Source: Muricea muricata
Lineage: Eukaryota > Cnidaria > Anthozoa > Malacalcyonacea > Plexauridae
Reading direction: 5' to 3'
NCBI GenBank assembly: GCA_963855995.1
Contig: OY979717.1
Span: 15,215,460 to 15,279,459 of the forward strand
DNA: 64,000 bases
Under the pieces are notes generated by a model. The model was not told the DNA's origin. It searched no databases and saw only the letters and a list, made by a program, of their open reading frames with translations. Positions 13,893-19,713 of this stretch are shown here, in pieces. Every line of letters starts with the position of its first letter. Positions within the stretch are counted from its first letter, which is position 1. A program made the position numbers and the translations under genes.

Positions 13893-14060
13893 ATTATTAT
13901 TATTATTATTGTTATTATTATTATTATTATTATTATTATTATTATTATTATTATTATTATTATTATTATTATTATTATTATTATTATTATTATTATTATT
14001 ATTATTATTATTATTATTATTATTATTATTATTATTATTATTATTATTATTATTATTATT
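13893..14060 (+). repeat. (ATT)n microsatellite, about 168 bp
   Basis: Almost pure ATT units with one GTT near the start. It follows the tail of the LINE fragment and immediately precedes the complete LINE. The poly-Asn and poly-Ile ORFs on the minus strand are artefacts of this run. Confidence 0.95.
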
Positions 14061-17000
14061 GATTTTTTTATTATTATGACATCGAACAGAGCTAGACACG
14101 CTTTGTACATGTCTGAAGTTTAATTGAAATATCTTACTTGATTTACAATTTACAGTTCTCCAAATTTAAAAGAAAGTGGTATGATTCGTTCAAGCATTGT
14201 TTTATTATTTTTGTCTTGTGTCATATGTTCGTTTTGTGGAAAAGATTTTGTAACCCTTGGTCGACATCAATGGCGCTGTAAACAAAAGATTAATGATCCT
14301 AATTTAAATGCTAATTCTGAAAGCCCAACATCATATGGAATACATGTGGAGCCGGTTATCAGCTCGCCAACTGCAACTATTACGAAAAAATTAGGAGTTA
14401 AGTGCTGTTGTGGAAAAGTGTGTAAAGGAGCTCGAGGTCTCAAAATGCATCAACGCAGTTGTAGGGTCATATTGGGGCTAAATGAAGAGTTACTAGAACA
14501 TGTTATCGATCAGGAAGAAGACAGTAATGATTGTAGAGGTGACCTAAATGAAATCTGTGACAATGCGGCTTTTAATGATGATCAAGATGCCGAATATCCA
14601 GAATTAAAGAAGGGTATAAATCTACCAAAAACCGACTCAGAATGGTTAACGGCCAACGAATATTTCAAATTTGCCTTGGCAACTGATCCTCCAATCATAA
14701 GTCAGGATTTAAGTTCATCAATACGACACTTGAACGACACTATATACAACCATTTTGCTCATAATTTTGGCTACGTGGAAAACTTACCGGATAATTCACT
14801 CGTTGACAAATATAAAAACCACAGCATAAAGGAATTGAAAAAGGCCTTAAAATTACTTAAATTGACCGATTCTGACCTTGTTGAAATCAAATATGTTTCT
14901 CGTCTAGTACGCAGCAAGCTTAAAACTAATCCTAATAATAATACCGACGAATCGTTTAACCATGATAAATACTTTGAACGTAATTTCTGGGGATATGTGA
15001 AGAGAGTTGTAAATTACAAGGAAACCACCCTGCCAACCTTTAATATGAATGACTGCTTCTCATACTTTAAAAACGTTTTCGCTAAAATCAATCCAAACAA
15101 ATTATTTCATATACCAAATTGGATCCCATTGTTACCTGATCCGAGTATCGAATTTGACCTTGAACCACCAACATATCAACAAGTGACAAATATAATCCGC
15201 AAAATGAAAACATCTGGCTCACCTTGTCCTCTCGACCAACTCTCCATTATTTGCTTTAAACGTTGCCCATATTTACGATCTTACCTAACCAAACTAATTA
15301 AAGCAGTGTGGCTTTCTGGATCTATCCCCGACGAATGGAAGAAAGCTTGCACAATACTAATCCACAAGAAAAATGACACAAACTTGCCAGAAAATTTCCG
15401 TCCAATAACCCTCCAATCGGTGCCGCTGAAAGTATTCACTTCAAGTCTACGTAATGCAATGTTCACCTTCTTACTTGCTAATAACTTAATTGAACACAAA
15501 ATTCAGAAAGGATTCACCCCTCATATTTCAGGAACATTTGAGCATACCGCACAAATGGCATATATTATTAATCAGGCAAGAATCAGACAGCGATCCCTCG
15601 TGGTAACCCTCCTTGACCTCAAGAATGCTTTTGGTGAAGTACATCATAATCTCATACAATCTGCGCTTCGCTATCATCACATACCTGATCATATTCAAAT
15701 CATGATTAAAAGTCTTTACACAAACTTCAAAACATCAATTATCACGTCTAATTTTAATACCCCGTTTATACAAGTTGGTCGTGGAGTTTTACAAGGAGAT
15801 TGTCTTAGCCCTTTATTATTTAACCTTTGCTTCAACACTTTCATTCAGCACATAAAATCTGAGAAATACCAACAGTTTGGTTTTTCGCATAAGCTCCTCA
15901 ATCCAATCCACTGGTTCCAATTTGCTGACGACGCCGCGGTAATCACAAGTCAAGAGTCCGAAAATCAACACCTGCTAAACCGTTTCGCAATTTGGTGTCA
16001 ATGGTCAGACATGATCATTCGAGTAGATAAATGCAGTACCTTTGGCATTAAAAAGCGTCTCACTAAATCTATACAATACTTTCCCAAGCTAATAGTCAAC
16101 AACAGTCTAATACCAGCGATTAAACTCGGAAAGTCATTTTGCTATCTAGGAAGATATTTTGATTTCGAAACGACAAATAATGAACATAAATTGGAATTGT
16201 TCTCCCTTATAACAAACCTGATGAAAGAAATTGATCTTAAGCCATTACATCCTAAAAACAAAATTCTAATCTACACTCGCTACGTATTACAGAAACTCTC
16301 ATGGCATTTAACTATAGCCACACTTCCCAAAACCTGGATTTCCGAAAACTTAGATTCAATCGTCAACCAATATATCCGCAAATGGCTTGAAGTACCCATT
16401 TCTGGAACTTTAAGTAACGTTTACCTAACTAGTAACAAATTTGGTTTGAATGTTATCCCACCATCAACTAAATTTATACAGTGCCAAACAACTATACGGA
16501 CTGCTTTAAAACAATCCCCTAATGAATCAATAACACATCTCTGGAAATCGACGAATAACCACATTAACGTCCAATACGACCAATACAACTCGACAAAGAA
16601 CGCAATCAAGTCATTCCAAGAAATGCAGGAAGATAAACTTCAGAATCAGTTGTCATGTCAAGGATCATTCTTCTCCAGTATCTTGAAATTCTCATTAGCT
16701 AAAATTAGTATCATTTGGCCATCCTGTCAATCCAAACTACCAAAAAATATTTTCAACTTCTCCATTCGTTACATCAATAATTCCCTGCCGACCCGTAAAA
16801 ACCTGCACAAGTGGGGAATCTCTTCGTCTCCTGAATGTTCGTTTTGCCTCCAATCCGAAACTTTACTACATGTCGTGGCTGGCTGCAGTTCCTATTTGGA
16901 TCGGTTTACTTGGAGACACGACTCTATTCTTAATTTTATTGCCAACAACGTCCAATCAGATCATATTAAAAAAATATTTGCTGATTTGCCCTCATTCTTT

Positions 17001-17918: not shown

Positions 17919-19544
17919 GACTGTTTGTCCCCTTTATTGTTTAATTTGTGCGTAAATTCACTTATTAACACGATAAAAGATGAAAGAATTCACTGTCTCG
18001 GTTATGTTAACGATGTCTCATTGAGACCGCGCCATTGGTTTCAATTTGCAGATGATGCTGCAATAATATCTGCGCACAATGAAGATAATCAACTATTGTG
18101 CAATGCATTCAGTAAGTGGTCCTCTTGGGCCGATTTGTACATCCGAGTAAATAAATGTCACACTTTTGGGATAAAAAAATTTGGATCAAGAGCGGTCCAA
18201 TACCCGCCTATTATCAAAATCTCGGGTCAGCTGGTCCCTCCAATTGAAGACGGTGAAAGTTTTATGTACTTAGGTAAACAATTCAATTTTAAAATGGATT
18301 GTTCTAATATCAAAGTTGAGATTCTTGACGAGCTCCAAGCTTACCTAAAGAAAATTGATATACTCCCAATAAATCCATTTCACAAGATTCGTGTGGTTCA
18401 AAGATATGTTTACTCAAAGTTCTGCTGGCGTTTTTCAGTATATCCGCTTACTATAAGTTGGGTGCGCTCTCATAAGGATTCACTGATTTCCAAATATATA
18501 CGAAAATGGCTCCAGATTCCTATCAGCGGTAATATAAGTCATCTGAAGTTTCCTAAGTCGCAACTGGGAATCGACTTCTGTTCGATTTCAGACATATACA
18601 ATCAATGTAGAGTTACAGTGCGTAGAATATTGAAAACTTCTGTTAATCCTGAAATTCAACAATTATATACAAAGACATCGTCGCAAAATATTGTCACCGA
18701 TGATATCATTGAACGAGCGGCTGCGGGTATTTCCGAACAATATGAGATGAAAAATGCGGCAAAGAAGATTGTGGAAAAGGAAAACCTTGCGAAAATTTGG
18801 TCTAATTTTGTTGAAACGAAAGAAAAATCTGTGATTATCACCTCTATAACGGACTGTTGTTACAAAATGTTGATCAAATTATGGCATGACATTGTCTGCC
18901 GAATGCCGAGCAATATAATATGCTTTGCCAGACGGTCGTTGATCCTTAGCCTAGGAAATAACTCCAACTTGAGACGTTGGAACATTCGTGACTCTGCAGG
19001 GTGTGATTTGTGTCAGAAGATGCAGACTCAACGACATATCTTTTCAAATTGCAAGGTTGCACTAGAGCAAGGCCGGTATACTTGGCGGCATGACTCGATC
19101 TTGCTTACTATAATCCAACATTTTAAAGCCATAGCTAATGAAGATCTTCGGTTATTTGTGGACTGCCCAAATTCAGGTACAATGTGTAGTTCAACCTTAT
19201 TTCAAACGTCAAGACCAGATCTGGTGGTAGACCTAAAAGGCTCTGTTTATGTGGTCGAGTTAACTGTTCCCTATGAAACTAACTGTAAAGAAGAAAGATA
19301 CAAACACTTAAGATCTGAGTTGATTATGACGTGTCGTACGTTTGAAGTCATTACACTTGAAGTTACCACTCTAGGTTTCGTGTCAAAGGATATTGATAGA
19401 TTTCGCACACTATTACGAGCATTTGATCTGAATGATGAACGTATTATTAGAAAGTGCATGTAGGTAGCTCTTAGAGCAACATTTTATATTTATTGTAGAA
19501 GGAATAAACCTTGGAATAATCCAGACTTGCTGAGTTTCTATTAG
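17919..19544 (+). pseudogene. 5'-truncated RLE-type LINE of a second family
   Basis: Homology begins abruptly inside RT motif B (DCLSPLLFN), directly after AT-rich sequence that follows the ATT array: the pattern of 5' truncation during target-primed reverse transcription. Retained parts are motif C FADD (HWFQFADDAA), the CCHC knuckle CDLCQ..H....C, and the endonuclease R-P-D..VVELTVPYETN. The frame is open to a TAG at 19461-19463. Reading through it, the same frame encodes the expected C-terminal tail and stops at 19542-19544, so this TAG is a premature nonsense mutation. By eye the protein is only moderately similar to that of the complete LINE, so it belongs to a separate family. Confidence 0.85.
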
Positions 19545-19713
19545 GTGCTATCGATATATATGTGTAGAGAATGGACCTATCTGCTTAAAATAGTGAACTG
19601 TTTCTCTTATATTTAGATTAAATTGTAAATCTAATGATTTTGTAACTTCATTTTCATTAATAAAGATTTCTACTGTTTAAAAATTATTATTATTATTACT
19701 ATTATTATTATTA
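19545..19713 (+). mobile_element. 3' UTR and short (ATT)n tail of the second LINE
   Basis: A short 3' UTR with AATAAAG near 19660 ends in about ten ATT units (19683-19713, one ACT). The tail mirrors the junction at 17540-17552 of the complete element. Confidence 0.7.

What the first reader, a model, noticed from the sequence alone, without database searches (positions are those of the whole stretch)
13893..19713. Two diverged RLE-type LINE families share an (ATT)n microsatellite target, one copy intact
A complete element with an uninterrupted 1069-residue ORF (two N-terminal CCHC fingers, RT, CCHC knuckle, PD..E endonuclease) has ATT repeats on both sides. Directly downstream, a 5'-truncated element from a clearly different family starts after the same array and ends in ATT repeats. 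Dong of silkworm (R4 clade) is known to insert in TAA repeats, so microsatellite targeting by RLE LINEs has precedent. Two families at one locus suggest a conserved targeting mode in this lineage, with an intact copy as a candidate for current activity.
Basis: partly seen in the sequence, partly recalled or inferred. Interest (0 to 1): 0.75.

Follow-up and report, generated by a model that had tools for sequence, protein, structure and literature searches.

The report
Stacked LINEs in an ATT microsatellite
Two distantly related jumping genes of the R2-like kind, one with an intact protein gene, sit in the same orientation inside runs of ATT repeats directly behind the end of a third such element; landing in simple repeats is already known for relatives, so this is a good but mostly ordinary example.

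Summary
E1 (about 14078-17551) is a non-LTR retrotransposon with an uninterrupted 1069-residue ORF: two N-terminal finger-like motifs, R2-like reverse transcriptase, CCHC knuckle, restriction-like endonuclease (RLE). E2 (about 17917-19682) is a 5'-truncated relative, 34% identical in protein. ATT arrays lie on both sides of each.

So E1's 5' ATT may be that element's tail, and E2's 5' ATT may be E1's tail. All three 3' ends read AATAAAG, 5-17 nt, (ATT)n on one strand. Likeliest: orientation-specific target-primed insertion into ATT runs, at least partly supplied by LINE tails. Targeting as a family trait is not shown: no other copy could be collected, because the genome search did not complete (15 calls).

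Dong is an imperfect precedent: its sense-strand flank is TAA, not ATT, and R4/Dong are reported to lack N-terminal fingers. Microsatellite insertion by RLE LINEs is published for Dong, Togen and some HERO families. New member of a known kind, perhaps a variant; moderate interest.

The parts
13277..13892 (+). Remnant of a third LINE: coding end in two frames (pieces 13277-13372 and 13339-13755, stop at 13756), 3' UTR, AATAAAG at 13879-13885, 7 nt, then ATT. Assignment to the CR1/L2-like APE group is from memory only.
   Evidence: no Pfam match for the coding piece; start of the remnant not defined
13893..14077 (+). ATT array between the third LINE and E1
14078..17551 (+). E1, complete-looking RLE LINE; 5' boundary uncertain between 14061 and 14078; about 103 nt 5' UTR, 161 nt 3' UTR with AATAAAG at 17540-17546
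14181..17390 (+). E1 ORF, 1069 aa: finger-like motifs near residues 16-33 and 75-94; RT 394-621 with LDL at 478, QGD at 538, FADD at 581; knuckle C886-C889-H897-C902; endonuclease RPD at 951, VELT at 966, K983
17552..17916 (+). ATT array between E1 and E2: (ATT)104 GTT (ATT)4, then 38 nt of decayed ATT-like sequence against E2
17917..19682 (+). E2, 5'-truncated RLE LINE of another family; coding 17919-19541 with in-frame TAG at 19461, final stop at 19542; AATAAAG at 19659-19665
19683..19712 (+). Short ATT array after E2

Best explanation
E1 and E2 are LINEs of the R2 group (RT followed by a restriction-like endonuclease) that landed inside ATT runs, in one fixed orientation, by target-primed reverse transcription. 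Proposed steps: the endonuclease nicks the AAT strand of the run; [quoted passage not shown] the RT copies the RNA and may slip, lengthening the array behind the element; incomplete copying gave the truncated E2. The first ATT run was probably the 3' tail of the older LINE upstream. Shown: the anatomy, arrays on both sides, shared orientation, intact domain order in E1. Inferred: nicking strand, pairing, slippage, insertion order (E2 before E1, because E2 and the array part beside it are more decayed) and preference for ATT.
For: ATT on both sides of both elements. All three LINEs lie on the same strand and all three 3' ends match AATAAAG plus 5-17 nt plus (ATT)n: 3 matches in the window, 0 in 100 shuffles (pattern made after seeing the sites). 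The three arrays make up 0.88% of the window, so two elements both bounded by them is unlikely for random landing (reasoned, one locus, after the fact). A truncated element keeps its upstream target as its left neighbour, and for E2 that neighbour is ATT. R2-like RT and endonuclease in E1. Microsatellite insertion is published for the group: Dong in (TAA)n (PMC7998251), DongAg and DongBg in microsatellites (PMC3636483), Togen in (TG)n and some HERO families (PMC4640811).
Against: One locus only; no other copy of either family was seen: scans of viral and prokaryote collections, where a eukaryotic LINE is hardly expected, found none, and the genome search did not complete. Each left-hand array can be read as the tail of the element before it. 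No empty site was available. A search for a duplication flanking the whole complex gave a longest shared word of 10 nt, which 41 of 200 random stretches reach or exceed. E1's 3' UTR shows no unusual fold (z -0.29).
Confidence: 0.6

Rival explanations
1. The ATT runs are 3' tails made by the elements themselves (carried in the RNA or made by RT slippage); the stacking is chance or a generic preference for AT-rich or tail sequence, without specific ATT recognition.
For: Every one of the three arrays directly follows a LINE 3' end, including that of the unrelated upstream LINE. (ATT)n 3' repeats are listed for three Chlamydomonas SINE entries (SINEX-1, -4, -5/-6) with RandI/Dualen LINE tails, and the I element ends in TAA repeats (PMC3747384). 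RTE LINEs create microsatellites through their tails (PMC2887409).
Against: Two successive elements also abut arrays at their 5' sides, in the same orientation, where arrays make up under 1% of the window. Random landing would rarely do this twice.
Confidence: 0.27
2. E1 and E2 belong to the R4/Dong clade, and this is simply its known (TAA)n targeting.
For: Same microsatellite as double-stranded DNA; RT then endonuclease; the Dong target is reported as (TAA)n in most insects, molluscs and cnidarians (PMC7998251).
Against: Opposite polarity: Dong has TAA on its sense strand, E1 and E2 have ATT. E1 has two N-terminal finger-like motifs, reported absent in R4/Dong. No HDV-like ribozyme was found at the E1 5' end (no positive control), whereas Dong and R4 have one.
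Confidence: 0.08
3. The juxtaposition arose by recombination between ATT arrays, or by misassembly at long repeats, and not by insertion.
For: The middle array is 342 bp of near-pure ATT, long enough to recombine or to confuse an assembler.
Against: E2's break lies inside its RT gene next to decayed, not pure, ATT, as expected of truncation during reverse transcription; the three 3' boundaries sit at natural-looking LINE ends.
Confidence: 0.05

Closest known systems
Dong (R4 clade)
   Same: RT plus restriction-like endonuclease, inserted in TAA/TTA microsatellites (PMC7998251 passages and section 14; PMC3774820 passages)
   Different: Sense-strand flank TAA instead of ATT; no N-terminal fingers reported; HDV-like ribozyme at the 5' end
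HERO clade, including microsatellite-specific families
   Same: RLE LINE; some families are microsatellite-specific (PMC4640811, passage, citing a Repbase report on leech HERO that I did not see)
   Different: Many HERO families are not site-specific; motif and polarity of the specific ones not seen by me; clade of E1 and E2 untested
NeSL clade, Utopia, and Togen
   Same: Utopia has one to three N-terminal zinc fingers, RT, finger, RLE; Togen is (TG)n-specific (PMC4640811, passages and section 9)
   Different: Targets named there are U2 snRNA, spliced leader, tRNA or rRNA genes, or (TG)n, not ATT
R2
   Same: Best PDB match over RT and endonuclease (E 2.4e-38)
   Different: R2 is defined by insertion in 28S rRNA genes; E1 is flanked by ATT arrays
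SaTar arrays of guayule and rice
   Same: Different mobile elements lined up in microsatellite-linked arrays without interrupting each other (PMC5907723, abstract)
   Different: Non-autonomous Mu-like DNA transposons, not LINEs

Membership tests
R2 group of LINEs (RT then restriction-like endonuclease) | Single ORF with RT, CCHC knuckle and PD-(D/E)xK endonuclease | tested here: met
   E1. E2: RT, endonuclease motifs only by alignment to E1
R4/Dong | No N-terminal zinc finger, a Myb-like domain instead | tested here: not met
   Two finger-like C/H motifs near residues 16-33 and 75-94 (pattern match only); criterion from PMC7998251. The Myb part was not testable (structure prediction off). E2 lacks its N-terminus.
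R4/Dong | (TAA)n on the sense strand at the 5' junction (Dong) | tested here: not met
   Sense-strand flank is ATT; Dong primer shows TAA (PMC3774820)
R4/Dong | HDV-like ribozyme at the 5' end | tested here: inconclusive
   Rfam search of 12800-20800 up to E 5 gave one weak unrelated hit; home-made descriptor 0 hits in 14060-14181; no positive control
R2 | Insertion in the 28S rRNA gene | tested here: not met
   Flanks are ATT arrays; no rRNA match in 12800-20800
HERO, NeSL, R4, R2, CRE | Placement in an RT tree | not tested
   No R4, HERO, NeSL or CRE reference sequences were found in the collections on hand
Microsatellite-specific LINE | Most copies of the family lie in the same microsatellite | not tested
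   The genome search did not complete (15 calls)

The most novel reading that the evidence does not exclude
ATT tails laid down by one LINE group serve as landing pads for unrelated endonuclease LINEs, which leave ATT behind them again, so that the target renews itself and several families share and extend it. The recognition has opposite polarity to Dong and would have arisen independently, with N-terminal fingers.
Probability: 0.2. Interest if true: 0.6.

Novelty: new member of a known kind. Interest (0 to 1): 0.35.

Why it matters
If other copies confirm it, this lineage gives an intact candidate protein for studying how an R2-like enzyme recognises a simple repeat, and a case in which the tails of some elements create the target of others. 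As it stands it is one more microsatellite-sited RLE LINE.

Tried and rejected
Relatives: viral contigs by protein, alignment and DNA pattern and prokaryote genome contigs gave none. Plasmids by protein gave one weak match, 25% identity over 21% of E1, on an Alicyclobacillus plasmid with no annotated gene there; plasmids by DNA none; phages none. NCBIfam gave only the group II intron RT model, far under its cut-off. The two 3' UTRs show no convincing shared block. AATTGTAAAT occurs in all three 3' ends, but 3 of 100 shuffles reach the window's total of 4 matches, one of which is on the minus strand in E1's 5' UTR. A 5' hairpin of E1: 0 of 500 shuffles fold as well for 14078-14114, 4 of 500 for 14078-14120, 56 of 500 for 14078-14180; the short stretch was chosen after folding. 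HDV-like descriptor: 0 hits in E1; 4 hits among 60 background draws, of which those starting between 13801 and 19999 were skipped (the script did not count them). Duplication flanking the whole complex: nothing beyond the null. Papers not held: PMC3312299, PMC309301, PMC4400214.

Full report
What is there. Reading the sequence and its ORFs confirms an element E1 at about 14078-17551 with an open frame of 1069 residues at 14181-17390. Pfam finds a reverse transcriptase (E 2.7e-23) and zf-RVT (E 2.5e-08) in it. Against the PDB the best matches are R2 proteins (E 2.4e-38), with the endonuclease region aligned as a second stretch. LDL, QGD and FADD of the RT, and RPD ... VELT ... K of the endonuclease, are in place; that these are the catalytic motifs is recalled. 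Two C/H motifs near residues 16-33 and 75-94 fit CCHC fingers; this is a pattern match, not a structure. The other five frames of the ORF hold 39 to 107 stops each, so the open frame is not chance.

E2 begins at about 17917, inside the codons for the RT motif QGD, and runs to about 19682. It is 34% identical to E1 in protein, 177 of 527 aligned columns, has one in-frame stop at 19461 before the terminal stop at 19542, and lacks six residues beside the endonuclease. Its RT matches R2 (E 1.3e-08) and Pfam RVT_1; its zf-RVT match is below the cut-off. It is a 5'-truncated, somewhat decayed copy of another family.

The arrays. Tandem Repeats Finder gives three ATT arrays, at 13889-14077, 17552-17893 and 19683-19713; their anatomy is. 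In 100 shuffles of the rest of the window, runs of four or more units arose 15 times in all and runs of five or more never. The middle array decays over 38 nt next to E2, and the left array has a GATTTTTTT break next to E1, so the 5' end of E1 is uncertain by up to 17 nt.

The third element. Upstream, from about 13277, lies a coding remnant in two frames that I recognise from memory as the C-terminal end of a CR1/L2-like LINE. No database call supports this: one search found no Pfam family, and one search found no second copy in the window. Its 3' end reads AATAAAGCTATATC and then ATT. E1 ends AATAAAGTTTTC and then ATT. E2 ends AATAAAG, 17 nt, ATT. A pattern built on these finds exactly three sites in the window and none in 100 shuffles; it was made after the fact. 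So each array can be described as following a LINE 3' end, and the choice between target and tail cannot be made from this locus alone.

Mechanism. Both E1 and E2 have ATT at their left sides, which an element does not make for itself. Two such landings, in the same orientation, in arrays that fill 0.88% of the window, speak for preference. A mechanism that fits is target-primed reverse transcription from an AAT primer strand onto an RNA ending in AUU, with the ATT run supplied at first by the upstream LINE tail. Tail and target are then the same thing at different times. Nicking strand, pairing and slippage are inferred. E2 before E1 is inferred from decay. Against it: one locus, no empty site, no flanking duplication beyond the null (41 of 200 random stretches share as long a word), and no unusual fold of the E1 3' UTR (74 of 200 shuffles fold at least as well).

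Literature. I saw passages, single sections or abstracts, no whole paper. PMC7998251 (passages and section 14) states that Dong inserts in (TAA)n in most insects, molluscs and cnidarians and that R4/Dong lack N-terminal fingers. PMC3774820 (passages) gives a Dong junction primer with TAA on the sense strand and speaks of ribozymes at the 5' ends of Dong and R4. PMC4640811 (passages and section 9) reports microsatellite-specific HERO families and (TG)n-specific Togen. PMC3636483 (passages) names DongAg and DongBg in microsatellites and several HERO elements without specific sites. PMC3747384 (passages and section 17) lists (ATT)n and TAA tails. PMC2887409 (passages) describes microsatellites born from RTE tails. 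PMC5907723 (abstract and outline) describes microsatellite-linked arrays of plant DNA transposons. PMC7650587, PMC5035012 and PMC5753468 (passages) added background only. So no claim of first report is made.

Membership. R2 group: met. R2 proper: not met by location. R4/Dong: two features not met and one inconclusive, so it should not be filed there. HERO, NeSL or a further clade: untested for lack of reference sequences. From memory only, proteins much like E1 are common in gene sets of marine invertebrates, so the family itself is probably not new.

Limits. The host is unknown; that it is a eukaryote is inferred from its LINEs.

Verdict. Observation confirmed; interpretation partly supported; a new member of a known kind, with a possible variant in polarity and fingers. 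The main correction is the third LINE, which turns a simple target story into a chain of tails and targets.

Noticed in passing
   Followed up: yes
30242-31299 and 31542-32584: Inverted pair of about 1.05 kb, 95.7% identical, 242 bp apart, each with a short ORF (MSLDGLDKLCGY...) that from memory resembles an integrase core; three ORFs of this region had no Pfam match.
   Followed up: partly
37629-38601 and 38901-39859: Second long inverted pair, 91.6% identical, 299 bp apart.
   Followed up: no
58141-60180: Decayed LINE-like stretch with an Exo_endo_phos_2 match below its cut-off (E 0.0069); RT-like motifs in broken frames read by eye.
   Followed up: partly
35560-36402: 280-residue ORF with a Sulfotransfer_5 match (E 1.2e-08).
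   Followed up: no
33393-33741: Tandem array of a 106-bp unit, 3.3 copies, 90% matches.
   Followed up: no
14078-14114: Stem-loop at the likely 5' end of E1; 0 of 500 shuffles fold as well, but the stretch was chosen after folding.
   Followed up: partly
13757, 17486, 19621: AATTGTAAAT occurs in the 3' end of all three LINEs; 4 matches in the window against 1.34 expected, 3 of 100 shuffles reach 4.
   Followed up: partly
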